Below the pieces are notes generated by a model, which worked only from the letters and a program-made list of their open reading frames with translations, did not search any database and was not told where the DNA came from. From Chlorops oryzae (Eukaryota > Arthropoda > Insecta > Diptera > Chloropidae), in NCBI GenBank assembly GCA_020466095.1, contig CM035808.1:78803863-78867862 (forward strand): a stretch of 64,000 nucleotides of DNA, read 5' to 3'. The translations under genes were made by a program, and so were the position numbers. Below, piece after piece: positions 10,404 to 55,077 of the stretch (its first letter is position 1; each line of letters starts with the position of its first letter).

Positions 10404-11720
10404 TTACCAAGACAAGCCGGAAAAACAAATTCGTAGGAAAGATTTTATGGCAAAACGCTTGTAGAATTTTTTTCTTTTCTCATATCCTTTTGTCAAACAG
10501 GAGGAAGTACTTGAAGAAGCAGAATGATGACGCTGGTGTAAAAAAGAAAAGTTTTCTCCTTGAGTCCCGTTTTGTAGGCGAACTGGTAGTTCAAACGAGG
10601 CTTGGTACCGATTGGCATTGCACATTAGCCTCAAAACGCATTTTTGCAAAATGAGAAGCGGCTTATTGTATTGGCATACGCACCTCCGCAGCAAGATATC
10701 CCATATGTAAGCCTTGAGTGAAACAACCCAAAATAAAACATTTTAAGTATGTGTCCAGAACAAAATTCGATAGTAAAACTTACGAAGGAAAGACCTAAAA
10801 TAATTATATTAATTAATATATAATAATTTTTCAAGAATAAGGTTTGCTGCTTCCAATTTAAAATTTTATATAAATATTATAACTCCTCAGTGTTTTATAC
10901 TCATAAACGTCGATAATAGGAATGCAATATGTTTTGCAGCTTGCAGGTTCATTTTAATAATTATCAGACGATAAAGGGTACTTTTCACAGCAAGAGTCGT
11001 GATAAATAATATCTATATCGAGCTGAACATGACGAGAAAAGTCTAAATGCATGAATCTTGACTAGTTGCTAATGAGGAGTTTGTTGTTCGTAAACTATTT
11101 CCTGAGAAGGTCAACGTCATGATTTAAGTCACAAATAAGCTAAAAATGTGTAGAAGATTTACAAGATAGTCCTAAATCATCAGCAAATTTAATTGATGAA
11201 GACTAGAAATAAAATAGCGCCGAGTGCTGAACCCTGAGGAACACCTAGATTTAAAACTGATGGGTTGCTTAAATCGTTTCCTTTTTTTTACTCTATGCTT
11301 ACGATTGCTTAGATAAGAAGTAAACCAATAATAAACAAAACCATGGAAACCAATCCTGTAGAGCGTTTCCAATAAAATTTTGTGATCGACCATATCAAAT
11401 GCTTTGGTAGTGACGACGAAAAAACAGGCACAGAGCTTGTTGTCATCGAGTCCTTTATGAAGGAAGGAGCGAAAATTTAGAAGTGCGTCTTCAGGAGACA
11501 TCCCAAATCTGTTACCATACTGTTTGGGGTAAAGAAAGTTGATTTTACTTAAAAAATTGATGACAAGGTCTTTAACAGCGTTTTCAAAAATTTTAGATAC
11601 GCATGAAATGATAGATATTGGTCGATAGTTAAGTACATTGTTTCGGTCTTCTATTTTGTGGAGAGGAACAACGATTGCTTGTTTCAGTTGATCTGGAAAA
11701 ATTACATTCGTTAAACTACG
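10404..11720 (-). pseudogene. EN-RT LINE (CR1/jockey group): RT 3' half and C-terminus
   Basis: This continues the ORF2 of the LINE at 15658-17100, from which it is separated by a hAT insertion. A long frame (11172 up to the insertion) carries RT blocks: VVPLHKIEDRNNVLNYRPIS, then a motif-A-type KAFDMVDHKILLETL, then IGFHGFVYYWFTSYL. The FADD catalytic motif appears at about 11185-11197 in a shifted frame. At 10400-10834 lie C-terminal-type segments (FGLFHSRLTYGISCCGGAYA; LLILQKCVLRLM). Frameshifts and stops make it dead. In the family ORF2 encodes endonuclease plus reverse transcriptase for target-primed retrotransposition. Confidence 0.85.
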
Positions 11721-13387
11721 GATGAACACAGGGGCGGATTTACCCATGGGCACTTGTGGGCAACTGCCCGGGGCGGCAAGTTTTAGGGGGCGGCAAATTT
11801 TGGTAAAAAGTATATTTTCCGAATCTTCAATCGTGTCGTGTCGCGAAAGCTCTTTTTGGATTTGTAGGCACATGTAGGCTTACAGGCGGGCATGTTACGG
11901 AAATTACTATTACAGTCGTCAATAACTTTAAATGCTCCTAAAATCATGCCGATTATGTTTTGAGCTTCCAATTCGAAGGGATTAAATATATGTGTGCCTT
12001 ACATCTGTAATAATGAAACAAAAGTTTTGTGGTAACGAATTATAGGGCACATAAAATTTCGGAGATCGTCAGTTTTTGACGATATTGATTTCCGTAACAT
12101 GCCTGTTAAACCAATAAACAACAATAATTTACAAATTTTCTCTTTGCTGTCTATTGCGCGAAAGCAAGTGCACAATTCATTCATAAGTAGGGCTCGCACA
12201 AATAAGCAAATTTAGCACTTTCAGCACCTTTTTCCGCAGCTTTTGTGTTTAGATGTAAACTGTAAGGCTCTTTATCCCACGCCAACGTTGTTTTCCGCCA
12301 GTGTTGCCAAACTAATACAAACTGATCGAAAGTGATACTTTTTTTCCAAATGATACGGGGATACTTTTTTTCTGAATTTGATACCTTATTTTTTTTAAGG
12401 GCTATAATGAAAAAATTCTCAATCAATGGAAAATACATACTTGCATTTGACAAAAATGTAAAGATAACACTGCTTAACAAATTTGGAATTTATAAAAAGC
12501 AACTGAATATTTGTGCAATTTTCCTGTAGATCTCGGCCTCCTAAGCAAGAAAAAAAATTTTTTTAATTTTTTTATGGAAGAGTTTTTGAGAAAAAATTTT
12601 TTGAAATTTTTTTCAGTGCATTTCGTAGGTGCACTTGCTATTTCAAGCATATCTCGGGCCCCGATCTACCGATTTTAATAAATATATTTTCCAAATATAG
12701 ATAATTAAGCTCCCTACAACTTTTAGAAACAAAGTTTTTGATTTGCATGAGTAGTTTTAGTGCTAGAGGTGCAATTATACAAGAAAATTGTGTTTTTTTC
12801 AAAAAAATCAGGGTAAATTTTTCATATAAAAATTTGTAAAAAATAGAAATCGAAGTGGAAAACCCATTTTCAAATTTTTTGCGTATAGCTAAGTATTTCT
12901 TCTAAAAAATAAGCCCCGTTTGGCTAAAAGCGGTGAAAAATTTACGGAGCTATGATTTTTTTGCCAAAACACTAAAAAATCGATATTTCACAATTTTTGC
13001 TTTGTTCACAAAACTTGTTCATATGAGCCGAAATTATTTTATGAAGGTGCAATTGAGTAAATTTTCACATATATAAATGCATAAATGCTGCCTCTTTATT
13101 GATTAAAAATGAATGTCGTTTTGCCCTGCCTTTTAGAATATTGTGGTGGATTTGTTTACCTGCCGGTCTCAATGACCTGTACCAGATAAAAAAGGGTGCA
13201 GTGCTTTCCCTTAGTGGAAAAAAATATAAGGTATCATGAATACGTTTTGTGCGTTAACGTCAGTTTTTATACTAAACGTGTTTCTTTACTTTCAATTTTG
13301 CCTAATGAATTGAGCGTAGTATAAAATACCTGAGGTTTTGCATACTTTACATACATACTTACATACAGTATAGAAAATTTATGGCAA

Positions 13388-13425
13388 TATATAAAAGGGT
13401 AACACTTATGCGTTTAGATTAGTAG
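13388..13425 (+). promoter_or_regulatory. Putative core promoter of the loop gene
   Basis: TATATAAAAG at 13388-13397 precedes an initiator-like TTAGTA whose A at 13421 lies 31 bp downstream of the TATAAAAG start. That leaves a 70-nt leader before the ATG at 13491. The same promoter is mirrored in the right arm at about 14052-14090, firing toward the loop from the other side. Spacing fits a TATA/Inr core promoter; transcription is inferred. Confidence 0.5.
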
Positions 13426-13490
13426 TCTTGAACTAAATTTTGAACAACGTACATCAATTGAAAATAAAACAAATTTTAAAATATAAAAAA

Positions 13491-14017
13491 ATGAGTAAAA
13501 GAACTCGTGTATTCATGTGCAAAAACAATCCGGACGATTTTTGCAATATTTGTGGATTATATATGTTAAAAAATAAAGGATTAGCGTTTACTGAAGCACT
13601 GCAAAAGCACTATTTCCATTACTTCGGTGTTTTGCCAACTCTCAATGAGCCGTGGACGCCTAAAAGAATATGTGACCTATGTCATAGAAAGTTATCAAAA
13701 TGGGCTTCTGGAGAACGGTAAGAATTAAAATTTAATACGCTATAAAAAAAACTAACTATTTGCATTCTAGCTGTTACATGGATTTTGACACGGCAATGGA
13801 ATGGAGTGAGCCCTTTTGTCACTCGGTGGACTGCTATTTTTGCCTTAGTGCAAGAAGTGGATTTGGGAAACATTTAAAATGGGAATACGCGAAAGTTGAT
13901 TCGGTAAAATTTCCTCTACCTCATTCAAGTGATGTGCCTTATCCAGAATGCCCTGGCTCAGCACCCATTTTTTTATTCATTTTTTTATATTTTAAAATTT
14001 GTTTTATTTTCAATTGA
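13491..14017 (+). CDS. Two-exon zinc-binding protein gene in foldback loop
   Basis: Exon 1 runs 13491-13717 and exon 2 13771-14017. The 53-bp intron has GTAAG, a CTAAC branch-point candidate at about 13752 and TTCTAG. Splicing gives about 157 residues. Exon 1 has an N-terminal CNIC pair (residues about 18-21), a YFGVLPTLNEPW block and a CDLC pair (61-64). Exon 2 carries EWSEPFCHSVDCYFCLS and VPYPECPG. This ordering (CxxC, Y-F-G, W-x-P, CxxC, H-x-x-DCYFC, then a proline-rich stretch) resembles a poorly characterised arthropod family often found scattered and TE-associated. Function is unknown; a Zn-binding, possibly nucleic-acid-binding role is inferred. The last 15 or so residues come from arm sequence, so the true C-terminus is probably lost. 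The start is fixed by the ATG after an A-rich leader. Confidence 0.7.
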
Positions 14018-15657
14018 TGTACGTTGTTCAAAATTTAGTTCAAGACTACTAATCTAAACGCATAAGTGTTACCCTTTTATATATTGCCATAAATTTTCTA
14101 TACTGTATGTAAGTATGTATGTAAAGTATGCAAAACCTCAGGTATTTTATACTACGCTCAATTCATTAGGCAAAATTGAAAGTAAAGAAACACGTTTAGT
14201 ATAAAAACTGACGTTAACGCACAAAACGTATTCATGATACCTTATATTTTTTTCCACTAAGGGAAAGCACTGCACCCTTTTTTATCTGGTACAGGTCATT
14301 GAGACCGGCAGGTAAACAAATCCACCACAATATTCTAAAAGGCAGGGCAAAACGACATTCATTTTTAATCAATAAAGAGGCAGCATTTATGCATTTATAT
14401 ATGTGAAAATTTACTCAATTGCACCTTCATAAAATAATTTCGGCTCATATGAACAAGTTTTGTGAACAAAGCAAAAATTGTGAAATATCGATTTTTTTGT
14501 GTTTTGGCAAAAAAATCATAGCTCCGTAAATTTTTCACCGCTTTTAGCCAAACGGGGCTTATTTTTTAGAAGAAATACTTAGCTATACGCAAAAAATTTG
14601 AAAATGGGTTTTCCACTTCGATTTCTATTTTTTACAAATTTTTATATGAAAAATTTACCCTGATTTTTTTGAAAAAAACACAATTTTCTTGTATAATTGC
14701 ACCTCTAGCACTAAAACTACTCATGCAAATCAAAAACTTTGTTTCTAAAAGTTGTAGGGAGCTTAATTATCTATATTTGGAAAATATATTTATTAAAATC
14801 GGTAGATCGGGGCCCGAGATATGCTTGAAATAGCAAGTGCACCTACGAAATGCACTGAAAAAAATTTCAAAAAATTTTTTCTCAAAAACTCTTCCATAAA
14901 AAAATTAAAAAAATTTTTTTTCTTGCTTAGGAGGCCGAGATCTACAGGAAAATTGTACAAATATTCAGTTGCTTTTTTTTTGTTTGACAGTGTAATCGAT
15001 GATATTGAGGATTTTTGGGGCAACGTTTCAAATATGAAAAACACAATCTAAAACAAACACATTGCTTTGTTGTTGCTAAACTAAACGGATTTTGACATTC
15101 CCATTTCGTTTGATATCACTGATCTGTGATTTTTATTTTTTTTTCAGTTGTTGTCCTAGTGCCTACACCTTGAATTGAAGTATGTTCATATGTTTATTTT
15201 AAGCCCGATTGTTATGTTTGTTAGCATAAGAATAGCTGATTTTGTTCCTATTTTTTATATTATTTTTTGAAATTGTGAAAATGACTTCTTTTTTTAACAT
15301 TGAAATTTGAAGAAAGTAAAGAGTTTCCGTTTATTATTTTAGTAGAGTTTTTTCAATTTTTAATGGACATTTTCATTGGCGTTATCAAATTATACTTTTG
15401 ATACATTATTTATAACACAATTTGCAAATAAAAAAGCTAGGCGAGTGTTTATAGAATAATTTTTCTTTTATGAAAGATGAAAAGGAAATATTGTATAGTA
15501 TTTTCTCTAATATAAAAACTATACTGTAAAAAAGATTGAATTGTTTCGTTTTTTTTTTTCTACAAATTTGATGCCTAAATTAGAGGAAGAGTGGGGGGCG
15601 GCAACTTTATAAGTGCCCAGGGGTGGCAGGATGCCTAAATCCGGCCCTGGTTGAACA

Positions 15658-26260: not shown

Positions 26261-26772
26261 GTGGCCACATTAATATAATAAAATTAGCATCCGTGTACTC
26301 CAAAAAATGTTGGAGTAGAAAGTAAACCAAAATGGTTTGTATATAAATCCACACGAAATTAGTTTAAAATGTAAACCATCGTCTCTAATAAAAATTTAAA
26401 CGATGAATGTTTTAAAATATAGATGATATTATAAAAGTGATTTATACCATCTGACGCGTACAATTGATAACGAAAAAAGTTTACACAGATTTTACAAATC
26501 GATTGTTTATATAATTTATGCTAAAAATAGTGTGAAATTGTTTTACACAAACATGGTGTAAAATTTATGCGAAAATCAGTTTAAATGGGTTTTAAAGGGG
26601 ATGAAGTTATTTTAAAATTTTACTCAGGTATTAATGTAATTCAAAATGAAATACAACGAAAATTTTTTTAAATGTAAGAAGAGTTATTTTTATTAATGTT
26701 GTTGTCATGTAACAATTAAACGCCATATAATTTTTACAAGTATATTACAAGGTTTTCCTTAGTATAAACATC

Positions 26773-27000
26773 TTATTTTTTTTTTTGAGATGTAATAAGC
26801 TCATATGATTTGAAACTTTTATAGTTTGCGAAACTTAAAACACACTTTTCGTTTGTTTTAATAAGCTGAAACGAGTTGTGAAAATCACTGAAGCCACAAA
26901 TTTTAAATTCTGTGCAAACAAGAAAGTAAGCATGGCTTTTCAAAACTATGTTATTTATTTGGTACTCTGAAATATCTTCAATATTAGGAGCTGTCACCAA
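26773..27000 (-). CDS. Unassigned TE-type ORF, arm copy 1
   Basis: The frame encodes 75 residues starting MVTAPNIEDISEYQINNIVL, with AYFLVCTEFKICGFSDFHNS and a Tyr/Phe/Lys-rich tail. I do not recognise the family. The same protein recurs at 53153-53392 and, lacking its start, at 56538-56759, with conserved frame. It looks like the C-terminal exon of a transposon-borne protein; no catalytic motif is visible. Confidence 0.35.
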   Translation of the reverse strand: MVTAPNIEDISEYQINNIVLKSHAYFLVCTEFKICGFSDFHNSFQLIKTNEKCVLSFANYKSFKSYELITSQKKK

Positions 27001-27954
27001 GAGGCCACTACAAAAGTATGCAAAATATTCTATCCAATGCAGAAATTTTTACCTTTGGGATAAACGTAGACTCCCATATTGTATTAGATTTAAGCACTAA
27101 GCAAATAACATAGAGGTCTAACGTAGAACACAAAATTGGCTGAAAGTTGCGCTGAGCTTTACCACCCCAAAAAGCTATTCACGCCTTCGGAAGCATTCGG
27201 TTTTTGCTTTTGCGCTTGCAAATTGGTTTTGCTTCACATATCAAAGTCAAGTCAACATGAATTGATACTCCGAAGCGGAAGGTTGTCGCTTTGTTGAGTT
27301 GAAAATTTTATTTTTTTTTTGTTATTATCTTGTATGTGTGTACACAACAACTTCATAAAATACAAATTCGCTCTTCATTTTGCGAAGACGAGTGACATAG
27401 GTCTTACCTTCAAAAGCATTCATGCCAAACTAAGCTCACAAAGCATTATTTTAACGAAAATAGCTCTCTGCTTTGCACTGAAAGAATTGTAGTGGTTCAT
27501 TTTTCAGTTTCAGTGAAAATTTTAAAATAAAACTATATTATAATATGTTAAAATTAAAAAAAAGGGAAATTGAAATTTCAAAATAAAAAGCCTTATTTCA
27601 AGGAATTGATAATTTTCATCAAAATCGAAGCTGGCTTTGTCCTAAAAAAACAGAAAACCATGCAAATGTAAAATATAAAAAAGAGTTCTTAAGCCTAGAA
27701 ATGCGTTATACGCCAAAAACTAATAATAATAAAACTAATACTATTAATGAAAAATATTCGAAAAAACATTACATCAATTCGCATAAATCATTCGACAAAC
27801 GCCTCCTTCACTGGCTTCTTAACAACAACTGAGCTCGTTGCGAGTGCGCTCTTTATATCTGTACTCGGGAGCAACGAAGTTTCGCTCTCATTTGCTCGTT
27901 TCGTGCTCGCGTGGCCCGCCCTGCTCATAACATATATTTCAGCACAACGAGCAA

Positions 27955-28811
27955 CCCAGCAAGCAAATTTCGGAGCGCTCCGAATTATGTGTCTAAAAAG
28001 AGCCTTATTTAAGAGCGTTTAATGGGTAAGCACAAAAAATGGAGCGTTTTAGGAGCGTTTTCGGAGCATGTTCTGTCGTTTTTTAGCACGGGCTCAGAAA
28101 AAGCACTTTTTTCTGAGCGTTTTCAGAGTTGACAACTGGTTTGGTTGAAAGTTCTGCGAAAAATAACGCGATATGCAAGACGATTCAAATTTTCAGTTGT
28201 GCTTTTCAGTTCTGGTTAAATTTGAATGCGAAAGATGTGTAAGTAGTCAATGTGACAATTATAAAATTTAAGTTTTAGCCGGGGGAAAAAGAAAAAATTA
28301 AATAAAATGAGTAGTGCGCAAAGGTGAAGCCGGGAGGAGTACATTAAAATCGTGAAGCAGCCCATAGGAGAGAAACGACGCCGCAGCCAGTCTTTGTCTT
28401 TAAGTTTTGTTTATTTTAATTAAAGAATGTGAAGTTTTATTTATTTTTTACTGTTTTTAATAAATTTTGTTAGTTGTTATTATTAAAAATGCTATTATCA
28501 AAAATTTTAATAATTTCGTTTCCTTCTAAAGTGCACAGGTAAGTGCACAGTTTAGTGCACTTTTTGCAATTAAATCTGCACTTCACAATGAGTGATAAAA
28601 GAGCCTTTTAGGAGGTGATTCAGTAGCATTTCAATTGCCTAGAAAATTATCTTTTAGGTGCCTTTTATGAGGTTTTTATGTGCTTCATTAGGAAGGTGAA
28701 AGCACTTTTTTCGGAGTCCGAAAAGAGTCATATTAGGCTCACAAACTATCCACATAAAGTGCGACCGGTGCGACGGTTTCATAGAAAAAACGCTCATTTT
28801 GGACTCTTTTT
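27955..28811. repeat. CCCAGCAA-ended repeat, truncated copy
   Basis: It starts CCCAGCAAGCAAATTTCGG and runs into many GAGCGTTTT and GGAGC blocks. It corresponds to the complete copy at 51258-52200 but is cut at 28811, where it joins the GATAGAGGTATCGACACG block. Confidence 0.6.
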
Positions 28812-28817
28812 TGATAG

Positions 28818-29160
28818 AGGTATCGACACGATGGAGTAAATCTACTCCACATTCGATTACCAGTAGTATACTTTTCGGCATTTTTTTTTAACTAACACAG
28901 GATTTAAAAATAATAAATTGTCCAATTTCAAAGCCGTGTAACTTTGGTTTCTGTGAACCGATTTAAATCTATAATCGTAATTGAGCGTTGTTTTTTCCTG
29001 TTCGAGCTGAAGTAGAAGGATTTTAAACTTTCATGGCCTTTTTTTTCAGGGCACGTTCTGAAATGAAACCGATAAATAGATAATTATATAAATTGTTATA
29101 ACAAACCTTATGCAAAATAACCTATTTTTTTCAAGAAGATTTTTGTTGAAATGGCAAATA
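28818..29160 (+). repeat. Direct repeat inside left arm
   Basis: The block GGTATCGACACGATGGAGTA through the GGGCACGTTCTGAAATGAAA region is repeated at 30961-31300 with few differences. It occurs once, inverted, in the right arm at about 50110-50445. Confidence 0.8.
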
Positions 29161-29389
29161 TGCCTTTTCGCAAATGGTTCAAAATTGATAGGTTCAACAA
29201 TTTTTGGCATGACTTGATAATTTCCTCAGGTCTGAGTTTCTTCGACAACATATCTCCGTAAAATTTTGGTCGATCGTAGATTCGTTGCTTTCCTTTGAAA
29301 GATAGTTTTATAACCAAAAATTCTGGGAACATAATTGTATTTAAAAAATGAGATTAAAGCTAAAATTCTAAATTTTTCCATTGAAGTCG

Positions 29390-30530
29390 AAAATCGTCAT
29401 ATGGTCAGGCCACGAGAAACGTGACATAGTGGGTCTGGATTTTGATTTTTGGCTACATCCAAAGATTATAAGCGTTCATAGCTCCGCCATAATATATAGA
29501 GAGAATTCCCGTCAGTTGTTGTTGTTGTTGCAATTTGAAAATCGAAAATTTGACAATTTTTTCAATATTTCCTTTTATTCTTAATTATATCTAAAATAAG
29601 ACTTGAGATAATGAAAAATTCTTTCTTTACTCGTTTAGAATTTTAAATTGAATAAAAAATTAAATCGAAAAATTAGTATACACTGAAAAAATTGTTGGAA
29701 ATTCGAATTTAAAATAAACATTTGCGATTTGTAATAGAGCGAGCTACCGCCAATGTACCAATTGTACATTATTAGTAACCATTGAGCTTGTTTCAGAACA
29801 ATAAAAAAATCTTTGTCATTTCCAAGAATTTCGACACAGAGTATTTTTGTGAGACATTCATATATAAAGGCGCAAAACCATTGTAAAGCTTTTATTTCAA
29901 ATTTGCGACTAAAATAATATGAAGTTAGCAAAAACTCTGAATGAATGATCTGCACTTTTACATTACTTTGATATTGTTTAATTGTTAGTAAAAGAGCTTT
30001 TAGGAGGTTTGCAGACATTTCTAAGTCCGAAAATTACTTTTAGCACTTTAAGTTTTTTGTGTTCTTAGAAACACTTTTTTGAGTCGAAAAATAATAGCTC
30101 ACAAATATCCCATCAAGTGACCAAGGTTCGAAGTTTATAAAAGGGGCATATAAATTTTTTATGCAATATAGGGCAATGTATAAAGTAAAAATGTCAAAAA
30201 TGTGTCGAAACGTTTTGTTTGCGGAAGCTTCGGACTTACTGCTAGATTGGAATAAAGTTCTAACCTTTCGGAATAGGAAAATATCGATACTATAGACAAT
30301 CTTTGAACATATTTCGCGGATTAGTGAACCAATGTTCGGAGAATTCTGCACGAAGGTGAAAAGTATGGTGGCACAAGCATTAAATTCGAACATTTTCAGA
30401 TGCAGAAAATAAGAGCCATGGCCCCTCCAATTTAATTGTTTGAGGGGAAAAAAGTGCTTTCGCCCATAGTAGCGCAGCAATGTGCGAAAGTCTGAACTCT
30501 AAATGCGTAAAAAAGCGCAGTAGGAGAGAA
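29390..30530. repeat. Repeat block shared with 47790-49860
   Basis: It contains GTCAGGCCACGAGAAACGTG, a GTTGTTGTTGTTG run and a region matching the AACTTTATTCCAAT-containing part of 48201-49040. In the right arm the same material forms its own inverted repeat. No coding region is supported. From 30540 to 30660 a short piece matches, inverted, the gene relic at 62237. Confidence 0.5.
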
Positions 30531-31348
30531 GCGATTTTAATGGTTGACGCTCTAAGAAATCGCGTCAGCGAACCTAGTTTAAGGAATTTTAAGCATATTT
30601 TTAAGTTGAAATGTATTTTGGATTTTTAGAAATAGTTAGTTGTAATAAAACCGATGGCGAAAGAACAATTTAAACGGCCAGACCAAAACAGGGCTTTATG
30701 TGTTTTATTTCCAACAATTATATCTTAAAACTTTGTTGAGTTGATATTTTTTTTTTTTTTTTGTTATAATTCTCTTGTTTCTGTGTACGTACGTTAATGT
30801 GTGCACAAATGCCAACCCAGTCGGAAATTTTCCCATAAAGGACCAATTCATTAATTTTTTCACCAATGATATCAAGGGAAAAATTCGAGTACTTCTTAAT
30901 TGCAATGGCAATGTCATCGGGAAGAAATGTTATTCATCGCAACTCAAATGGCAGTGTCATCGATAGAGGTATCGACACGATGGAGTAAATCTACTCCACA
31001 TTCGATTACCAGTAGTATACTTTTCGGCATTTTTTTTTAACTAACACAGGATTTAAAAATAATAAATTGTCCAATTTCAAAGCCGTGTAACTTTGGTTTC
31101 TGTGAACCGATTTAAATCTATAATCGTAATTGAGCGTTGTTTTTTCCTGTTCGAGCTCAAGTAGAAGGATTTTAAACTTTCATGGCCTTTTTTTTCAGGG
31201 CACGTTCTGAAATGAAACCGATAAATAGATAATTATATAAATTGTTATAACAACCTTATGAAATAACCTATTTTTTCAAGGAAGATTTTTTTGAAATGGC
31301 AATATGCCTTCTTTCAAATGGTTACAAAATTGATTACAAGAAGAAGGT

Positions 31349-33264
31349 TCAATAAAAAGATTTTGTGCCCATAGCAGCTGCCATTTTCCGAAAACCATTC
31401 ACTGTACTTTGAGTGTTTTTCGGTTTCGGAAATGCATTTTTTAAATATTTGTTCTTTAATTTGTGCAGAATTCGGAGTTTTATCAAAGACACTTTTAAAA
31501 CTCTCGAAGTGCTTTCTAATTTGAAGAAGAAGTCAGAAGGAGCCTTCAGTTTCAATGAATTACTCATAGAAGCATAGTTCTGATTTTGTAAAAATAACTC
31601 AGAGGAGTCGATATACTCTTCATCGTGTCTTAAGAGCTGTGATCATTTTGTACAATCATGTTTTTGCATGAATTTTAAAAGTATATAGCCAGCAAAATAT
31701 CGCAACGCATTATCGTTAAACACGTTTTCCGCAATATTTGACACTGTTTCATCTAGGGCTAAATATATGAGTTCTTTAGAGCTTGCTGACATTAAGTCTT
31801 TGGGTATCTTATTTTCCAACGTAGAAATAGATTGTGAGCTTTCTTTACTGTCATTTTCACACTGGATTGCATTTAAAATTGTTCGGTTATTATTTGTCGC
31901 ACCTCGAGACCTTATTAGCTAAAATAAAATTTCTAAGGGATCTTCATTGAATTAAGATATTGCCAAGAAAGTATATTTCCGGATTTTCCTCCCACATTTT
32001 TTCACCCAAGGCCAATATGGATGAAATGGACAGGATAATTCCATCAATACAATAAACCTTTTTGTGGTACTTGCGGTTCCGAAAATATTCTATCATCTCC
32101 TCCCTTAGAAAAGTATGGACCTCAATATTTTTTGTCAGAGCACTACGATAAGGGTTTTTGTCATATAAGACATGACTGTTTAAACAATCAAAGAGCCTGT
32201 TTACCTTCTCCACAAACTTAGCTGCAGCAATTGCAGTATCGCGGAAATCGGAAAATTCGTTATTGGTAATCATAGTCCGAATTGCTGCACAAACAGTATG
32301 GCTAAATATTTGAGTTGCATATTTGACTTTCATTTTTTCGAAAGTATTTGGGCTTAATTGAGGACAAAGACGAGCAGAATATTTCGAATCGGTTGCAAAA
32401 AGGCGGGATATCACCGTCCACGAATTTTTTCCGTCTGGTGTTACCAAATCATCCTTCATAAAAACATTTCGTACGGACTTAATCAAATGGGGACATCGAA
32501 CATTACGAAAACTGGTTTCCCATTTACCACAAACGATAATTCTGGTTGAATACCGAAATTCGAAAACGTCGCTCTATTATTTGACCCTTGGTCATAACAT
32601 ATTGACCTAACCTTTATTCCGACATCCTCCGCGGCACATATGTTGTTGCTTACAATAGGCATTAACTGTTTGGATGTCAAACCGGTAGAGGAGGCGTAAT
32701 AACTTAAGACATATTTCCAATTTTTAAATATTCCACGTAACATAAAAACGAATATTTGGTTTCTTAAGTCTGGAGTCTTTTCAATTCCATTGTCGACAAA
32801 GCCCTGTATTTTATCCAAAACAATATTGTATTGAAGGGCTATTTTTATTAAAATTTCGTCAAACAAAAGAACTGCTTCTCTATTTCTACCGTCCATATTC
32901 GAAAAAATTGTTTTTAAATTGCTAAGAAAAGCTGTGTTTAGTCCTGGTGTCACATTCTTTAAAGGGGCCCACCGCGCTAATGATGCCTTGGATGGCAGAT
33001 TTAATTTCAGGTCATTTCGTAAGAAATCATAAGTTCTGGCAGAGTAAAATGTATGTTTTGGGAAATAACCTTTTCTTCAGGGTTCCATATCGTTTTATCG
33101 CTTACAAGCATTTTACAAAAATCTTTACTTTTTTCCAATATTCCTTCAAAAGCGTTAACACCTTTAAGAAAGAGAACTCGCATTTCATTATTTTTAAGCT
33201 TTAAATTTTTCCAATGTTCCTTCAAAAGCGTTAACAGCTTTAATAAAGAGAACTCGCATTTCAT
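31349..33264 (-). pseudogene. P-element-like transposase, left arm
   Basis: This is a P-superfamily transposase (THAP-less as preserved), which in the family performs GTP-dependent cut-and-paste with 8-bp target duplication. Segments in order are: KSKDFCKMLVSDKTIWNP-type N-region (33264-33007); LLFDEILIKIALQYN, IQGFVDNGIEKTPDLRNQ, FVFMLRGIFKNWKYVLSYY and ICYDQGSNNRATF (32953-32483); KYATQIFSHTVCAAIRTM (32486-31944); and KLKAPSDFFFKLESTSRVLK (31567-31349). A frameshift in a C-run at about 32484 destroys the DxPHL-K-S-RN block (reads FDVPI then stop). The right-arm copy has the same break, so it predates the arm duplication. The THAP zinc finger is not seen. Confidence 0.88.
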
Positions 33265-33316
33265 TATTTTTAAGCTTTAAATTTATCCAATGATCCTTCA
33301 AAAACGTTAACACCTT
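33137..33316. repeat. Tandem repeat of about 75 bp at the P-like gene 5' end
   Basis: CCTTCAAAAGCGTTAACACC, AAGAGAACTCGCATTTCATT and TTTTTAAGCTTTAAATTT recur about every 75 bp, giving nearly three units. The mirror set is at 45490-45665. A further single unit at 47546-47625 faces the opposite way beyond the 3' end of the right-arm P-like gene. It may be a subterminal transposase-binding repeat of this P-like family. Confidence 0.6.
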
Positions 33317-33317
33317 T

Positions 33318-33849
33318 GTTAGGTAGACTGGTTTGTCAACCTATTGATGTTGGCATAAAAGATTTCAATTGCAGCATATAAACTGAATTGCGCTTTTATG
33401 TTGATTTGGCGCGACAAACGGCACTTTAACCGTGTCACTTCTGCTTTAATGAAATGCTTGTTTTGACTTCAATTAAAGAGTAAATATTATTTGCACCTTA
33501 CGGCGTTTATATCCTAAAATTTTGTTGACAAGCTATAATTTTCATTTTCATAAATACAATTCAAATATAACGAACTTATTGCAATGGTTGCATTATCATG
33601 ACTATGAACTACAATGTTACGCAAACAAATTATTGGGTATTGACTTGTTATTGATCTGCATTTTCGAATTCAAAGTTCGAGCCAAAACAAAAGGGCAATT
33701 TGATATGAATGCAGTGTTGGCAAAATTCGCGATACAATTTTTATAAGTCGTCATTGAAGTTTATTTGTTACCAAGTTCATTGCTCAAGTTTGTAAATGCA
33801 ATCAAAACAAAAAAACAGAACTACGCAAAATGATACGACATCTGTATAT
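33318..33849 (-). repeat. BEL retrotransposon LTR (3' LTR of the minus-strand element)
   Basis: On the plus strand it begins TGTTAGGTAGACTGGTTTG and ends near ACGACATCTGTATAT, where a palindromic element (33850-36023) is inserted. Near-identical copies occur at 43296-43825 and, inverted, at 44975-45481. Its outer border is fused to the P-like gene region at the same base as the third copy. The ORF inside it (33522-33746) is not a gene. Confidence 0.7.
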
Positions 33850-44892: not shown

Positions 44893-44974
44893 AAAGGGAA
44901 AATAAGCGATCAAGTTGGCTCACTTCTTTGTATTTTTTTATCCTTATCCTGTAGGAAAAGGATAACTTACATAT

Positions 44975-45481
44975 GACCTATGATTTTGCGTAGTTCTGTT
45001 TTTCGTTTTGATTGCATTTACAAACTTGAGCAATGAACTTGGTAACAAATAAACTTCAATGACGACTTATAAAAATTGTATCGCGAATTTTGCTAACACT
45101 GCATTCATATCAAATTGCCCTTTTGTTTTGGCTCGAACTTTGAATTCGCAAATGCAGATCAATAACAAGTCAATACCCAATAATTTGTTTGCGTAACATT
45201 GTAGTTCATAGTCATGATAATGCAACCATTGCAATAAGTTCGTTATATTTGAATTGTATTTATGAAAATGAAAATTATAGCTTGTCAACAAAATTTTAGG
45301 ATATAAACGCCGTAAGGTGCAAATAAATTTACTCTTTAATTGAAGTCAAAACAAGCATTTCATTAAAGCAGAAGTGACACGGTTAAAGTGCCGTTTGTCG
45401 CGCCAAATCAACATAAAAGCGCAATTCAGTTTATATGCTGCAATTGAAATCTTTTATGCCAACATCAATAGGTTGACAAAC
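44975..45481 (+). repeat. BEL LTR, third copy, inverted
   Basis: It is the reverse complement of 33318-33830. Beyond CATTTTGCGTAG it diverges to TATGACC where the other two read GTCGTATC then the palindromic element. It abuts the P-like region at the same base as the left copy. Confidence 0.75.
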
Positions 45482-45499
45482 CAGTCTACCTAACAAAGG

Positions 45500-47455
45500 T
45501 GTTAACGTTTTTGAAGGATCATTGGATAAATTTAAAGCTTAAAAATAATGAAATGCGAGTTCTCTTTATTAAAGCTGTTAACGCTTTTGAAGGAACATTG
45601 GAAAAATTTAAAGCTTAAAAATAATGAAATGCGAGTTCTTTTCTTAAGGTGTTAACGCTTTTGAAGGAATATTGGAAAAAAGTAAAGATTTTTGTAAAAT
45701 GCTTGTAAGCGATAAAACGATATGGAACCCTGAAGAAAAGGTTATTTCCCAAAACATACATTTTACTCTGCCAGAACTTATGATTTCTTACGAAATGACC
45801 TGAAATTAAATCTGCCATCCAAGGCATCATTAGCGCGGTGGGCCCTTTAAAGAATGTGACACCAGGACTAAACACAGCTTTTCTTAGCAATTTAAAAACA
45901 ATTTTTTCGAATATGGACGGTAGAAATAGAGAAGCAGTTCTTTTGTTTGACGAAATTTTAATAAAAATAGCCCTTCAATACAATATTTTTTGGATAAAAT
46001 ACAGGGCTTTGTCGACAATGGAATTGAAAAGACTCCAGACTTAAGAAACCAAATATTCGTTTTTATGTTACGTGGAATATTTAAAAATTGGAAATATGTC
46101 TTAAGTTATTACGCCTCCCTCCGGTTTGACATCCAAACAGTTAATCCTATTGTAAGCAACAACATATGTGCCGCGGAGGATGTCGGAATAAAGGTTAGGT
46201 CAATATGTTATGACCAAGGGTCAAATAATAGAGCGACGTTTTCGAATTTCGGTATTCAACCAGAATTATCGTTTGTGGTAAATGGGAAACCAGTTTTCGT
46301 AATGTTCGATGTCCCCATTTGATTAAGTCCGTACGAAATGTTTTTATGAAGGATGATTTGGTAACACCAGACGGAAAAAATTCGTGGACGGTGATATCCC
46401 GCCTTTTTGCAACCGATTCGAAATATTCTGCTCGTCTTTGTCCTCAATTAAGCCCAAATACTTTCGAAAAAATGAAAGTCAAATATGCAACTCAAATATT
46501 TAGCCATACTGTTTGTGCAGCAATTCGGACTATGATTACCAATAACGAATTTTCCGATTTCCGCAATACTGCAATTGCTGCAGCTAAGTTTGTGAAGAAG
46601 GTAAACAGGATCTTTGATTGTTTAAACAGTCATGTCTTATATGACAAAAACCCTTATCGTAGTGCTCTGACAAAAAATATTGAGGTCCATACTTTTCTAA
46701 GGGAGGAGATGATAGAATATTTTCGGAACCGCAAGTACCACAAAAAGGTTTATTGTATTGATGGAATTATCCTGTCCATTTCATCCATATTGGCCTTGGG
46801 TGAAAAAATGTGGGAGGAAAATCCGGAAATATATTTCTTGGCAATATCTTAATTCAATGAAGATCCCTTAGAAATTTTATTTTAGCTAATAAGGTCTCGA
46901 GGTGCGACAAATAATAACCGAACAATTTTAAATGCAATCGAGTGTGAAAATGACAGTAAAGAAAGCTCACAATCTATTTCTACGTTGGAAAATAAGATAC
47001 CCAAAGACTTAATGTCAGCAAGCTCTAAAGAACTCATATATTTAGCCCTAGATGAAACAGTGTCAAATATTGCGGAAAACGTGTTTAACGATAATGCGTT
47101 GCGATATTTTGCTGGCTATATACTTTTAAAATTCATGCAAAAACATGATTGCACAAAATGCTCACAGCTCTTAAGACACGATGAAGAGTATATCGACTCC
47201 TCTGAGTTATTTTTACAAAATCAGAACTATGCTTCTATGAGTAATTCATTGAAACTGAAGGCTCCTTCTGACTTCTTCTTCAAATTAGAAAGCACTTCGA
47301 GAGTTTTAAAAGTGTCTTTGATAAAACTCCGAATTCTGCACAAATTAAAGAACAAATATTTAAAAAATGCATTTCCGAAACCGAAAAACACTCAAAGTAC
47401 AGTGAATGGTTTTCGGAAAATGGCAGCTGCTATGGGCACAAAATCTTTTTATTGA
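45500..47455 (+). pseudogene. P-element-like transposase, right arm
   Basis: It has the same domain order as the left copy, with the C-terminal part better kept. The frame at 46985-47455 includes NDNALRYFAGYILLKFMQKH and CTKCSQLLRHDEEYI, the family's 'AGY' C-terminal region. It carries an additional frameshift at about 45988 (T-run) and sequence changes at 46120-46140. It shares the FDVPI-stop break (about 46318) with the left arm. It also lacks a THAP domain and is non-functional. Confidence 0.88.
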
Positions 47456-47629
47456 ACCTTCTTCTTGTAATCCTTATTCGCAAAAATTGCATTTGGCTTA
47501 CCGACAAAATAACGCAGAAACTTAAAATACTTTCCCAATAATTTTTTAAGCATAAAATTTATCCAATGTTCCTTCAAAAGCGTTAACACCTTTAAGAAAG
47601 TGAACTCGCATTTTCATATTTTAACCATA

Positions 47630-49900
47630 TACATTAGGGTGGGTCGTTTTTACGAAAGTTCTAAGATCGCGATGGAATAGTAAAATTATGTTTCCTTATG
47701 TATAAAAAATATATTTGTGTAAAAGAAAATTCAAAATAAGCTGCATCTTTATACCTCGCAAACGGATTGAAAGTTGGAAAAAAAATTATTTATATGGGTC
47801 AGGCCACGAGAAACGTGACATAGTGGATCTGGGATTTTGATTTTTGGACCTTACATCCAAAGATTATAGCCGTTCATAACTCCCCATAATATATAAGAGA
47901 GAAATTCCCTCAGTTGTTGTTGTTGTTGCAATTTGAAAATCGAAAATTTGACAATTTTTCAATATTTCTCTTTTATTCATAATTTTATATCTAAAATAAG
48001 ACTTGAGATAAATGAAAAATTCTTTCTTTACTCGTTTAAGAATAAATGAAGAAAAAAATTAAAATTCGAAAAATAGTATACACTGAAAAAAATTGTTCGG
48101 AAATTCGAATTTAAAATAAACATTTGCGATTTGTATATAGAGCCGGAGCTAGAATTTTAAGCAATTGTACATTATTATGTAGACCATTGAGCTGCGTTTC
48201 AGAAACAATAAAAAAAAATTTGTATTTACAAGGAATTTCCGACACAGAGCGTTTTTTGTGAGACAACCTTCATATAAGAAGGCGCACAACCATATAAAAA
48301 TCGGTTTCTCTCCACTGCAGCTTTTATTTACGCATGAAGAGTTCATGAACTGCGCACAGGCGCGGCAACTATGGGGGTAAAGGCACTTTTTTCCCCTCCA
48401 AAAATTTTATTGGAGGGGCCATGCCCCCCCCAATATTTCGGCAACTGAAAATTATTCGAATTTACATGCCTGTGCCACCCTACTTTTCACATTCGTGCAG
48501 AATTCTCCGAACATTGGTTCCAACCTAATCCAACCAAAATATGTGTCAAAGATTGTCTATAAGTATCGATATCTTTCCTATTCCGAGAAGGGTTAGAACT
48601 TTATTCCAATTGCAGTAGATAGAAACAATAAAAAAAAATTTGTATTTACAAGGAATTTCCGACACAGAGCGTTTTTTGTGAGACAACCTTCATATAAGAA
48701 GGCGCACAACCATATAAAAATCGGTTTCTCTCCACTGCAGCTTTTATTTACGCATGAAGAGTTCATGAACTGCGCACAGGCGCGGCAACTATGGGGGTAA
48801 AGGCACTTTTTTCCCCTCCAAAAATTTTATTGGAGGGGCCATGCCCCCCCCAATATTTCGGCAACTGAAAATTATTCGAATTTACATGCCTGTGCCACCC
48901 TACTTTTCACATTCGTGCAGAATTCTCCGAACATTGGTTCCAACCTAATCCAACCAAAATATGTGTCAAAGATTGTCTATAAGTATCGATATCTTTCCTA
49001 TTCCGAGAAGGGTTAGAACTTTATTCCAATTGCAGTAGATATACTGCACTATTTCAAAATTTGACATCTACTCAACACTGCGTATTGTTCCCTGCATAAA
49101 ATTTTATTTTGCCCCCCCAATATTTTTGGAACTTGCCTCCCCTGACTGAGCATTTAAGTGTTTATGCACTAAATGAGTTTTAAGAACACATTGTTTTTGT
49201 TATTTCTTCGGTCTTAGCCAGTCGCACAAACTAAAATTACTAACAAAAACAATACGAACAGTAATGTAAAGCAGATCAATCAGATCAGACGTTTTTGCTA
49301 CCTTCATATTATTTGTAGTCTGCAAACATGAAATAAAAGCTTTTCATATGGTTTTGCGCCTTTTTATATGAAGGTTGTCTCACAAAAAACGCTCTGTGTC
49401 GGAAATTCCTTGGAAATACAAATATTTTTTTATTGTTTCTGAAACACAGCTCAATGGTCTACATAATAATGTACAATTGGTACAATTGGCCGGTAGCTCC
49501 GGCTCTATATACAAATCGCAAATGTTTATTTTAAATTCGAATTTCCGAACAATTTTTTTCAGTGTATACTATTTTTCGAATTTTAATTTTTTTCTTCATT
49601 TATTCTTAAACGAGTAAAGAAAGAATTTTTCATTTATCTCAAGTCTTATTTTAGATATAAAATTATGAATAAAAGAGAAATATTGAAAAATTGTCAAATT
49701 TTCGATTTTCAAATTGCAACAACAACAACAACTGAGGGAATTTCTCTCTTATATATTATGGGGAGTTATGAACGGCTATAATCTTTGGATGTAAGGTCCA
49801 AAAATCAAAATCCCAGACCCACTATGTCACGTTTCTCGTGGCCTGACCCATATGAGATTTTTCCGACTTCAATGATAAAATTTAGAATTTCTCAGCTTTA
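47630..49900. repeat. Nested repeats of the right arm
   Basis: It begins near ACATTAGGGTGGGTCGTTTT. An internal inverted repeat pairs 47790-48360 with 49330-49855 (GTCAGGCCACGAGAAACGTG, a GTTGTTGTTG run, GACACAGAGCG). Between them lies the exact tandem duplication 48201-48620 / 48621-49040. No coding region is supported. Confidence 0.6.
48201..49040 (+). repeat. Exact 420-bp tandem duplication
   Basis: 48201-48620 and 48621-49040 are identical over every line compared, starting AGAAACAATAAAAAAAAATT and ending TTGCAGTAGAT. It contains the GGAGGGGCCATGCCCCCCCC block. Confidence 0.95.
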
Positions 49901-50759
49901 ATCTCATTTTTTAAATACATTATGTTCCCAGATATTTTTGGTTATAAAACTATCTTTCAAAGGAAAGCAACGAATCTACGATCGACCAAAATTTTACGGA
50001 GATATGGTCGAAGAAACTCAGACCTGAGGAAATTACTCCAAGACATGCCAAAAATGTGTTCGAACCTATCAATTTTGCAACCATTTGGAAGAACGCATAT
50101 TGCCATTTCAAAAAAATCTTCCTTGAAGAAAATCGGTTATTTCATAAGGTTGTTATAACAATTTATATAATTATCTATTAATCGGTTTCATTTCAGAACG
50201 TGCCCTGAAAAAAAAGGCCATGAAAGTTTAAAATCCTTCTACTTCAGCTCGAACAGGAAAAAACAACGCTCAATTACGATTATAGATTTTTTAAATCGGT
50301 TCACAGAAACCAAAGTTACACGGCTTTGAAATTGGACAATTTATTATTTTTAAATCCTGTGTTAGTTAAAAAAAAAAATGCCGAAAAGTATACTACTGGT
50401 AATTGAATTTGGAGTAGATTTACTCCATCGTGTCGATACCTCTATCGATGACACTGCCATTTGAGTTGCGATGAATAACATTTCTTCCCGATGACATTGC
50501 CATTGCAATTAAGAAGTACTCGAATTTTTCCCTTGATATCATTGGTGAAAAAATTAATGAATTGGTCCTTTATGTGAAAATTTCCGACTGGGTTGGCATT
50601 AGTGCCCACATTAACGTACGTACACAAATACAAGAAAATAATAACAAAAAAAAAAAACAAAATTTCAACTCAACAAAGTGTTAAGATATAATTGTTGGAA
50701 ATAAAACACATAAAGCCCTGTTTTGGTCTGGCCGTTTAAATTGTTCTTTCGCCATCGGT

Positions 50760-51190
50760 TTTATTACAACTAACTATTTCAAAAAATCCAAAATACATTT
50801 CAACTTAAAAATATGCTTAAAATTCCTTAAACTAGGTTCGCTGACGCGATTTCTGCTGCAGTCGCATTCCCCCGCTGCTGTTTTTTCGCTTCAGTTTCTG
50901 CTGACGTCCTCGTCTTTCGCAACTTTCTCGCACGCACTTTGGACTTGCATTCCAATTCTTCATATTCTTGCCCGAATGCATTATTTAACTTCCACTCAAC
51001 TGCTCCAATTCAAACTTTTTAGGCCGTTGGTGCTTGTTGTTGCTTTCTTGCTTCCGATCAGCACAGTGGGTTCACGATATGTGTGTTATGATCACAAAAT
51101 TCCTTCCCCCTTTTTGTAAAAGATGGATCCGCATTCATGTGGATCGGTGGAGTAGTGGTTGGAGTAGGGCTGGGAGGTGGGATCGTTATG
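50760..51190 (-). pseudogene. Second copy of the K/R-rich gene relic
   Basis: It matches 62168-62602 in the same orientation (CTAGGTTCGCTGACGCGA, CGGTGGAGTAGTGGTTGGAG). It ends abruptly at GTTATGTCTTATAAGCTTAT. It holds the C-terminal part of the relic described at 62237-62884, with several base changes. A shorter inverted piece lies at about 30540-30660. Confidence 0.6.
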
Positions 51191-51257
51191 TCTTATAAGC
51201 TTATAAGCATACTCACTTACGCACACTCACTCACGCAGCTACAGTCCGAACGCACTT

Positions 51258-52200
51258 CCCAGCAAACAATATGAGCGTTTTCGGACACTTTTTGTACACT
51301 TTTTGTCGACTTTTTTATGAGCATTGACCCTCATAATGTGCACAAAAAAGAGTCCAAAATGAGCGTTTTTTCTATGAAACCGTCGTACCGGTCGCACTTT
51401 ATGTGGATAGTTTGTGAGCCTAATATGACTCTTTTCGGACTCAGAAAAAAGTGCTTTCAACTTCCTAATGAAGCACATAAAAACCTCATAAAAGGCACCT
51501 AAAAGATAATATTCTAGGCACTTGAAATGCTACTGAATCACCTCCTAAAAGGCTCTTTTATCACTCATTTTGAAGTGCAGATTTAATTGCAAAAAGTGCA
51601 CTAAACTGTGCACTTACCTGTGCACTTTAGAAGGAAACGAAATTATTAAAATTTTTGATAATAGCATTTTTAATAATAACAACTAACAAAATTTATTAAA
51701 AACAGTAAAAAATAAATAAAACTTCACATTCTTTAATTAAAATAAACAAAACTTAAAGACAAAGACTGGCTGCGGCGTCGTTTCTCTCCTATGGGCTGCT
51801 TCACGATTTTAATGTACTCCTCCCGGCTTCACCTTTGCGCACTACTCATTTTATTTAATTTTTCTTTTTCCCCCGGCTAAACCTTAAATTTTATAATTGT
51901 CACATTGACTACTTACACACCTTTCGCATCCAAATTTAACCAGAACTGAAAAGCACAACCGAAAATTTGAATCGTCTTGCATATCGCGTTATTTTTCGCA
52001 GAACTTTCAACCAAACCAGTTGTCAACTCTGAAAACGCTCAGAAAAAAGTGCTTTTTCTGAGCCCGTGCTAAAAAACGACAGAACATGCTCCGAAAACGC
52101 TCCTAAAACGCTCCATTTTTTGTGCTTACCCATTAAACGCTCTTAAATAAGGCTCTTTTTAGACACATAATTCGGAGCGCTCCGAAATTTGCTTGCTGGG
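51258..52200. mobile_element. MITE-like element with CCCAGCAA ends
   Basis: Ends CCCAGCAAACAA (51258) and the complement of CCCAGCAAGCAA (to 52200) form short inverted repeats. The interior is full of short GAGCGTTTT, GGAGCG and CACTTTTT blocks, with a GGAGCGCTCC palindrome near one end. It is 943 bp and non-coding, with no clear target duplication (CTT / TTG flanks). I cannot assign a superfamily. Confidence 0.5.
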
Positions 52201-53152
52201 TTGCTCGTTGTGCTGAAATATATGTTATGAGCAGGGCGGGCCACGCGAGCACGAAACGAGCAAATGAGAGCGAAACTTCGTTGCTCCCGAGTACAGATAT
52301 AAAGAGCGTACTCGCAACGAGCTCAGTTGTTGTTAAGAAGCCAGTGAAGGAGGCGTTTGTCGAATGATTTATGCGAATTGATGTAATGTTTTTTCGAATA
52401 TTTTTCATTAATAGTATTAGTTTTATTATTATTAGTTTTTGGCGTATAACGCATTTCTAGGCTTAAGAACTCTTTTTTATATTTTACATTTGGATGTTTT
52501 TCTGTTTTTTAGGACAAAGCCAGCTTCGATTTTGATGAAAATTATCAATTCCTTGACATAAGGCTTTTTATTTTGAAATTTCAATTTCCCTTTTTTTTTT
52601 TAATTTTAACATAATATAGTTTTATTTTAAAATTTTCACTGAAACTGAAAAATGAACCACTACAATTCTTTCAGTGCAAAGCAGAGAGCTATTTTTGTTA
52701 AAATAATGCTTTGTGAGCTTAGTTTGGCATGAATGCTTCTGAAGGTAAGACCTATGTCACTCGTCTTCGCAAAATGAAGAGCGAATTTGTATTTTATGAA
52801 GTTGTTGTGTACACACATACAAGATAATAACAAAAAAAAAAATAAAAATTTTAACTCAACAAAGCGACAACCTTCCGCTTCGGAGTATCAATTCATGTTG
52901 ACTTGACTTTGATATGTGAAGCAAAACCAATTTGCAAGCGCAAAAGCAAAAACCGAATGCTTCCGAAGGCGTGAATAGCTTTTTGGGGTGGTAAAGCTCA
53001 GCGCAACTTTCAGCCAATTTTGTTTTCTACGTTAGACCTCTATGTTATTTGCTTAGTGCTTAAATCTAATACACTATGGGAGTCTTCGTTTATCCCAAAG
53101 GTAAAAATTTCTGCATTGGATAGAATATTTTGCATACTTTTGTAGTGGCCTC

Positions 53153-53392
53153 TTGGTGACAGCTCCTAATATTGAAGATATTTCAGAGTACCAAATAAAT
53201 AACATAATTTTGAAAAGCCATGCTTACTTTCTTGTTTGCACAGAATTTAAAATTTGTGGCTTCAGTGATTTTCACAACTCGTTTCAGCTTATTAAAACAA
53301 ACGAAAAGTGTGTTTTAAGTTTCGCAAACTATAAAAGTTTCAAATCATATGAGCTTATTACATCTCAAAAAGCAATAAGATGTTTATACTAA
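53153..53392 (+). CDS. Unassigned TE-type ORF, arm copy 2
   Basis: This is the mirror of 26773-27000, differing at a few residues (NNIILKS for NNIVLKS) and at the C-terminus. The tandem duplication that follows starts inside this frame at 53188. See the left-arm entry for what can be said of the protein. Confidence 0.35.
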   Translation: MVTAPNIEDISEYQINNIILKSHAYFLVCTEFKICGFSDFHNSFQLIKTNEKCVLSFANYKSFKSYELITSQKAIRCLY

Positions 53393-55000: not shown

Positions 55001-55077
55001 CGCGGTAGCGATTGAAACTCAACTAAATTCAAAGTTCATATGCAAAAAGTATTTATTTATAAAACAATTTTTAGTTT

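What the first reader, a model, noticed from the sequence alone, without database searches (positions are those of the whole stretch)
12494..14985. Natural long hairpin: 1-kb inverted arms that duplicate a gene's promoter and start codon around its own coding loop
Seen: arms of about 1 kb pair almost perfectly. The left arm contains a TATA/Inr, 5'UTR and ATG; the right arm mirrors them, including the ATG (about 13979-13981 on the minus strand), with homology ending within about ten bases after the start codon. The loop is the rest of the gene with a 53-bp intron. Inference: read-through transcription gives a long hairpin RNA with a spliceable loop, and convergent promoters add antisense. Fly Dicer-2 processes such hairpins into endo-siRNAs, so this could silence related genes in trans.
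Basis: partly seen in the sequence, partly recalled or inferred. Interest (0 to 1): 0.75.

Follow-up and report, generated by a model that had tools for sequence, protein, structure and literature searches.

The report
Two-headed broken copy of jumping gene
The 1-kb hairpin is one defective copy of a young, abundant jumping gene whose right half was replaced by a mirror image of its left half, most likely by faulty DNA repair; it could make hairpin RNA against its own family, but nothing yet shows that it does.

Summary
The hairpin is real: 1010-nt arms with 4 mismatches, 464 nt between them; its junction occurs once in the 442-Mb genome. It is not a host hairpin-RNA gene. It is a defective copy (12468-14992, TAA duplications) of a young DNA transposon, inserted in a hAT-like element whose empty sites are found elsewhere. 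Intact copies are about 3.79 kb, have 0.87-kb terminal inverted repeats and encode a 557-aa two-exon protein with Chapaev3 hallmarks (CAC/GTG ends, TWA target sites, C(2)C, LH and mostly H(4)H motifs). In the intact copy examined, the repeat stops before the TATA box and a poly(A) signal follows the gene before the right repeat. Here the right half is an inverted left half (repeat, promoter, 5'UTR, ATG), joined through a short templated filler after about codon 141. A second double-left copy and one double-right copy were seen, so such foldbacks arise repeatedly, probably by gap repair that switches between the long repeats. The plan resembles maize Mu killer, but expression and silencing are untested.

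The parts
11729..15649 (.). non-autonomous hAT-like element into which the hairpin element is inserted
   Evidence: CAGGGSCGGATTTA-type inverted ends, flanks GATGAACA/GTTGAACA, 7 of 8 alike; 40 of 40 scored places (268 candidates) match the joined flanks across the insertion point
12465..12467 (.). target-site duplication TAA, left (preceded by A)
   Evidence: empty site GATAATCGATG seen in L041 and L043
14993..14995 (.). target-site duplication TAA, right (followed by T)
12468..14992 (+). the whole element: double-left foldback derivative of a Chapaev3-type transposon, 2525 bp
   Evidence: CACTG...CAGTG ends; comparison with the 3786-bp intact copy in L026
12468..13366 (+). left terminal inverted repeat, A-type end (family's normal repeat, element 1-899)
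13367..13494 (+). left-specific promoter, 5'UTR and ATG: unique in the intact copy, mirrored here
13388..13427 (+). TATA box (13388) and Inr-like site (13414); transcription start inferred at about 13421
   Evidence: sequence only
13491..13717 (+). exon 1 of the truncated transposase gene (ATG 13491)
13718..13770 (+). 53-nt GT-AG intron, present in the intact copies too
   Evidence: splicing not observed
13771..14017 (+). exon 2 remnant: transposase to about codon 141, then 16 residues read through filler and inverted arm to a stop
13968..13976 (+). junction filler which, with the base before it, repeats the adjacent ATTTTTTTAT; it lies between element position 1500 and the inverted left half
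   Evidence: the junction occurs once in the genome
13977..14104 (-). inverted copy of promoter, 5'UTR and ATG (ATG 13978-13980, minus)
14105..14992 (-). right terminal inverted repeat with B-type end
14371..14376 (+). first AATAAA after the loop in the plus direction; the gene's own signal (element 2764) is deleted

Best explanation
This is one defective, double-left foldback copy of a young Chapaev3-type DNA transposon with long (0.87 kb) terminal repeats. Shown: its left 1500 bp equal an intact copy, and its right side is an inverted copy of the left half up to the ATG, joined through a short filler that repeats the neighbouring bases. Inferred: it arose when gap repair after excision switched from the right to the left repeat of a template, copied inward past the promoter and was finished by end joining. 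Inferred: with the gene's poly(A) signal lost and two facing promoters, it can make RNA with an 83-bp 5'UTR stem and convergent sense/antisense RNA that match the promoter-proximal part of the whole family, as in Mu killer. Whether it is transcribed or silences anything is unknown; the default is that it is so far an inert by-product.
For: Left 1500 bp identical to the intact 3786-bp copy; the right arm matches the left half beyond the normal repeat end and stops at the ATG, with filler. The junction is found at 1 place with up to 3 mismatches, while the promoter segment occurs at 110 places. A second double-left copy (L030, AAA/AAA duplication, (AT)n junction) and a double-right copy (L040, TAA/TAA) show that the process recurs. 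All three have an A and a B outer end. 12 of 14 full-length copies have the 557-codon frame; in L026 AATAAA lies 14 nt after the stop, before the right repeat. Stem 83 bp, fold z -11.3 against 20 shuffles. Empty sites. Mu killer has both TIRs from the mudrA end and an inverted duplication (PMC3440606, abstract and passages).
Against: No RNA or small-RNA data. AATAAA also occurs at 13463 and 13572, inside the 5'UTR and exon 1, although the intact copy carries these too. The family looks young and many copies are intact, so no silencing is visible. Formation by crossing-over between copies, or by foldback priming at a break, is not excluded. Unlike Mu killer, almost no coding sequence is duplicated in this copy.
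Confidence: 0.8

Rival explanations
1. A functional hairpin-RNA locus: transcribed, cut by Dicer-2, and silencing the transposon family (or related genes) in trans, retained because it helps the host.
For: 83-bp perfect self-complementary stem from its own promoter, spliceable loop, facing promoters, loss of the gene's poly(A) signal; match to the promoter segment present at 110 places; Mu killer precedent.
Against: One copy and near-identical arms, so no time for or sign of selection; 12 of 14 sampled full-length copies are intact; no expression data. In Mu killer itself the passages read argue for short antisense transcripts rather than the long hairpin, and report that antisense transgenes did not silence (PMC3440606).
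Confidence: 0.12
2. A protein repressor copy, like P-element KP (recalled): the 157-aa product keeps the N-terminal Cys/His region and lacks the catalytic part, so it could compete for ends or multimerise.
For: The frame is open through the remnant and keeps C18, C21, C61, C64, H93, C97 and C100, which are found in 27 to 30 of 30 aligned sequences, own protein included.
Against: One copy only; 16-residue tail of no known meaning; its mRNA would fold its own 5'UTR into the stem and probably be translated poorly (inference); the KP comparison is recalled, not tested.
Confidence: 0.06
3. Assembly artefact: two copies collapsed into a false palindrome.
For: Long near-perfect palindromes among more than 100 near-identical copies are an assembly hazard (general knowledge); no reads were available.
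Against: Correct TAA duplication, different A and B outer ends, a variant at arm position 37 otherwise seen only on B ends (7 of 7), a variant at 495 in 1 of 42 sampled arms (this one), filler at the junction, matching hAT flanks and empty sites.
Confidence: 0.04

Closest known systems
Chapaev3 transposons (Merrow, Garfield, Conan)
   Same: CAC/GTG ends, 3-bp TWA target sites between A and T, two-exon transposase of nearly the same size (Garfield_BM 556 aa, here 557), C(2)C, LH and H(4)H motifs (PMC4079192, passages)
   Different: Element 3786 bp with 0.87-kb repeats, against 2289 bp in all for Garfield_BM, of which about 1671 are coding, so its repeats must be much shorter (my arithmetic); interior found in both orientations relative to the two terminus types; foldback derivatives
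Mu killer of maize (derivative of MuDR)
   Same: Internally deleted transposon copy with both TIRs from the transposase-promoter end (PMC3440606, abstract and passages)
   Different: Other superfamily, and a plant; silencing shown for Mu killer, not here; in this copy only promoter, 5'UTR and ATG are duplicated, not the coding part (in L030 about 0.3 kb of the gene is)
Drosophila hpRNA loci (endo-siRNA hairpins)
   Same: Long inverted repeat with a loop, potentially self-complementary RNA (starts of the abstracts of PMC10317233 and PMC10292708 in the listing)
   Different: Those studied silence selfish host loci and are supported by siRNA work; this is an untested transposon copy
Galileo and other Foldback-like elements
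   Same: DNA transposons with long, structurally variable TIRs; defective copies ascribed to abortive or template-switched gap repair (PMC4168063, passages)
   Different: P superfamily, not Chapaev
Tc1 read-through dsRNA silencing
   Same: Inverted ends of a transposon form dsRNA in transcripts (review PMC3878927, passages)
   Different: Tc1 relies on flanking transcription; here promoters lie inside the duplicated arms

Membership tests
Chapaev3 (parent transposon) | 5'-CAC ... GTG-3' termini with inverted repeats | tested here: met
   Found in the window copy by free alignment. In the other loci the ends were located with A and B motifs that begin with CACTG: both ends found, each beside a 3-bp duplication, in 17 of 18 fetched loci and in L040; L025 had one end only
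Chapaev3 (parent transposon) | 3-bp TWA target-site duplication between A and T | tested here: met
   3-bp duplication in 19 of 19 elements with both ends (window, 17 loci, L040); TWA in 18 of 19 (L030 is AAA); left A in 18 of 19, right T in 16 of 19
Chapaev3 (parent transposon) | transposase motifs C(2)C, LH, H(4)H | tested here: met
   In 30 aligned sequences (own protein and 29 of the 1861 relatives): C325/C328 and L373/H374 in 30 of 30; H509 in 30, H504 in 22 (Q in 8)
Chapaev3 (parent transposon) | catalytic D, D, E | tested here: inconclusive
   Candidates D252 (30 of 30), D306 (29 of 30), E506 (30 of 30); the assignment is mine; no transposase model hit in Pfam
Chapaev3 (parent transposon) | Chapa zinc finger (RAG1 N-terminal type) | tested here: inconclusive
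   Pfam RAG1_imp_bd: E 0.91 and 0.56 for the loop protein, below the cut-off; no such hit at E <= 1 for the full 557-aa protein; 3 of 30 aligned sequences, best E 0.0064; zf-AD in 15 of 30, best 0.00049
Chapaev3 (parent transposon) | groups with Chapaev3 transposases in a tree | not tested
   No named Chapaev3 sequences were fetched
hpRNA / endo-siRNA locus | transcript folding into a long duplex | tested here: inconclusive
   Predicted 83-bp perfect helix; the transcript itself is unproven
hpRNA / endo-siRNA locus | phased 21-nt, Dicer-2 and AGO2 dependent small RNAs | not testable with these tools
   No RNA data
Mu killer-like silencer | internally deleted copy with both ends from the promoter end | tested here: met
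   Window copy and L030
Mu killer-like silencer | inverted duplication of part of the transposase coding gene | tested here: not met
   Window copy: mirror identity stops one base after the ATG. L030 does meet it, element 1-1325 duplicated
Mu killer-like silencer | silencing of active family members | not testable with these tools
   needs crosses and RNA

The most novel reading that the evidence does not exclude
Long terminal repeats make this Chapaev3 family inherently self-limiting: each transposition risks a repair product with two promoter ends, and such products (this copy with an 83-bp stem, L030 with 372 bp) act as newborn Mu killer-like loci in an animal, feeding the siRNA pathway against the whole family.
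Probability: 0.12. Interest if true: 0.75.

Novelty: new variant of a known kind. Interest (0 to 1): 0.42.

Why it matters
How a genome first recognises a new DNA transposon is an open question. Mu killer is a well-known case (to my knowledge the clearest) in which a rearranged transposon copy does it, and it is a plant case. Here is a family caught young, with three foldback copies of two kinds and many intact relatives, so one can ask directly whether such accidents start small-RNA silencing. It also suggests what long terminal repeats cost a transposon: they invite gap repair to take the wrong end.

Tried and rejected
Host-gene hairpin: rejected, since the loop belongs to a protein family with 1861 relatives at E <= 0.001 (no source name shown there calls it a transposase, that reading is mine from ends, target sites and motifs), and full-length copies abound. 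P-superfamily foldback (Galileo-like): rejected for this element because target sites are 3 bp and the protein differs; P-type (TNP-like) domains lie elsewhere in the window. The loop protein alone found no homologue (3 candidates, none at E <= 0.001), no solved structure at E <= 1 (its 141-aa form gave GATA-3 at E 0.72) and no viral locus (2 pattern matches, none confirmed). Rfam and tRNA scans of the window: nothing. My first orientation of the fetched loci used a probe inside the repeat and was ambiguous; redone with a promoter probe. First translations used a wrong start base and gave an empty protein; corrected. Notes place the ATG one base too far right. Literature: no title or abstract on foldback Chapaev copies was seen in searches (20 of 158 papers listed; 6 of 6; 12 of 54); this is weak evidence of absence. 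One search returned no paper; searches returned 3, 3 and 2. PMC2996935 and PMC8355894: one passage each. Recalled, from no call: the likeness to the RAG1 N-terminus that led me to Chapaev, the polymerase-theta style of templated filler, P-element KP, N-RAG-TP before I read of it. The species was not identified; 'animal' and 'insect' rest on the named relatives and on the kinds of elements seen.

Full report
Observation. The inverted repeat is real: 1010 nt per arm, 464 nt between, 4 mismatches. It contains, in both arms, a TATA box, an Inr-like site and the ATG. No other stretch of the 64-kb window matches it among matches of 100 nt or more at E <= 1e-10.

What it is. Beyond the arms, gapped inverted homology continues to CACTG...CAGTG at 12468-14992, with TAA on both sides. 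The element sits inside a hAT-like element at 11729-15649, beside which lies a reverse-transcriptase frame (11172-11873, minus, overlapping the hAT end). Joining the hAT flanks with one TAA gives a sequence matched across the joint at 40 of 40 scored places among 268 candidates; GATAATCGATG is seen directly in L041 and L043 (L042 did not match the words printed there). So this is a transposon insertion.

The parent. A genome search with the left arm scored 40 of 422 candidates, all about 100% identical. In the first 20 loci (1.5 kb on each side), only the window's own locus, L001, shows the complete right arm next to the loop; L011 shows an inverted piece of the loop, later seen to be the foldback L030, and L012 a piece of the repeat, later seen to be a copy with an internal deletion. 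Eighteen regions around the best matches were fetched, so the sample is biased towards well-preserved copies. The copy in L026 is 3786 bp, with terminal repeats identical over 873 aligned bases and one gap, and a two-exon gene for a 557-aa protein. Of the 18 fetched loci plus the window, 14 elements have both ends 3.7-3.85 kb apart, and 12 of these 14 keep the 557-codon frame; left out of that count were L025 (one end found), L029 (insertion), L031 (deletions), the truncated first copy in L035, and the foldbacks L030 and window. The protein has 1861 relatives at E <= 0.001 among 6435 candidates; of the 120 listed, five bear names, all from insects (Anthophora, Onthophagus, Mythimna, Scirpophaga, Odynerus).

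Classification. Chapaev elements have CAC/GTG ends and the motifs C(2)C, LH and H(4)H; Chapaev3 has TWA sites between A and T, and Garfield_BM has two exons coding 556 aa (PMC4079192, passages read). Here: 3-bp duplications in 19 of 19 elements with both ends, TWA in 18 of 19, left A in 18 and right T in 16 of 19; C(2)C and LH in 30 of 30 aligned sequences, the first H of H(4)H in 22 and the second in 30 of 30. A Chapa zinc finger, reported for Chapaev and Chapaev3 transposases (PMC4411706, passages read), is only weakly supported: RAG1_imp_bd matches are below the cut-off for the loop protein, absent at E <= 1 for the full protein and present in 3 of 30 aligned sequences. No tree was made. 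The element is about 1.5 kb longer than Garfield_BM, which the long repeats would explain (inference; Garfield's repeats were not seen).

How the hairpin arose. In the intact copy the repeat stops at element position 899, before the TATA box. In the window copy the first 1500 bp equal L026 without a change, then comes a 9-nt filler (13968-13976) that, with the base before it, repeats the neighbouring ATTTTTTTAT, and then an inverted left half starting one base after the ATG. The outer right end is of the B type with a variant at arm position 37 found in 7 sampled arms, each a B end; a change at position 495 is in 1 of 42 sampled arms, this one. The junction occurs once in the genome at up to 3 mismatches. 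L030 is a second double-left copy: element 1-1325, an (AT)n junction, then 2634 to 27 inverted, B end, AAA/AAA. L040 is a double-right copy with A and B ends and TAA/TAA; its middle 0.37 kb aligns to the element only with many gaps. The promoter segment has 110 places, of which 100 are listed; among the 94 on C1-C3, two inverted pairs occur (window and L030). The right-end segment has 150 places; among the 100 listed, one inverted pair occurs (L040). Of the 88 promoter places within the range that both lists cover, 65 have the right marker at the full-length spacing, 6 shorter, 1 longer and 16 none listed (right markers with mismatches were not listed, so 'none listed' is not absence). Foldback counts are therefore lower bounds. 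The simplest account, inferred and not shown, is gap repair after excision: each broken end copies its own terminus, switches within the 0.87-kb repeat to the wrong end of a template, copies inward, and is closed by end joining with filler. [quoted passage not shown]

What it could do. In the intact copy the gene's AATAAA at 2764 lies 14 nt after the stop and before the right repeat, and the predicted fold of its transcript has no perfect helix over 10 bp. In the window copy that signal is gone and the first AATAAA after the loop is at 14371. A transcript from about 13421 to 14390 folds with an 83-bp perfect helix, z -11.3 against 20 shuffles. L030 would give 372 bp unspliced or 296 bp with its left intron removed. 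The two promoters face each other, so sense and antisense RNAs would also overlap. Against this: AATAAA also lies at 13463 and 13572, in L030 one lies before the stem's second half (position 3186) and could end the transcript early, transcription starts are inferred from sequence only, and there are no RNA data.

Comparison. Mu killer is an internally deleted MuDR with both TIRs from the mudrA end and an inverted duplication, and silences MuDR; individuals that silence carry transcripts antisense to the 5'UTR and first exons, while the long-hairpin route is treated as possible but minor, and antisense transgenes did not silence (PMC3440606, abstract and passages). The plan here is the same in outline, in another superfamily, but in the window copy hardly any coding sequence is duplicated. 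Silencing from transposon inverted ends is known for Tc1 (PMC3878927, passages), and hpRNAs suppress selfish loci in Drosophila simulans (starts of abstracts). Thus the mechanism would be of a known kind; the case is a new variant.

Verdict. Real, explained, and moderately interesting: a foldback derivative of a young long-repeat Chapaev3 family, with a testable but unproven silencing role.

Noticed in passing
L021-L038: The two terminus types (A and B) occur as A..B in 7, B..A in 6 and A..A in 1 of 14 full copies, and an interior variant (alignment column 2095) is found in both classes: the interior seems to have flipped between the long repeats more than once.
   Followed up: partly
L030 (C1:104999532-105003498): Second double-left foldback copy with a predicted 372-bp RNA stem, AAA target duplication and an (AT)n junction.
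   Followed up: partly
L040 (C1:89702069-89704702): Double-right foldback copy with TAA target duplication and an irregular middle.
   Followed up: partly
window 26261-33846 and 44968-53903: Several stretches present twice in inverted order at about 91-99% identity, with P-superfamily-like (TNP-like domain) frames at 31944-32896.
   Followed up: no
window 53188-59743: Tandem duplication of about 3.4 kb at about 99% identity carrying a 158-aa frame (55228-55704 and 58714-59190, minus) with a signal-peptide-like start (my reading) and no Pfam match at E <= 1 for the first copy.
   Followed up: no
window 48201-49041: Perfect tandem duplication of a 420-nt unit.
   Followed up: no
L031 (C1:104055200-104065000): Two neighbouring copies share the same 608-bp internal deletion (element 1724-2331), so a deletion derivative was copied or duplicated locally.
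   Followed up: no
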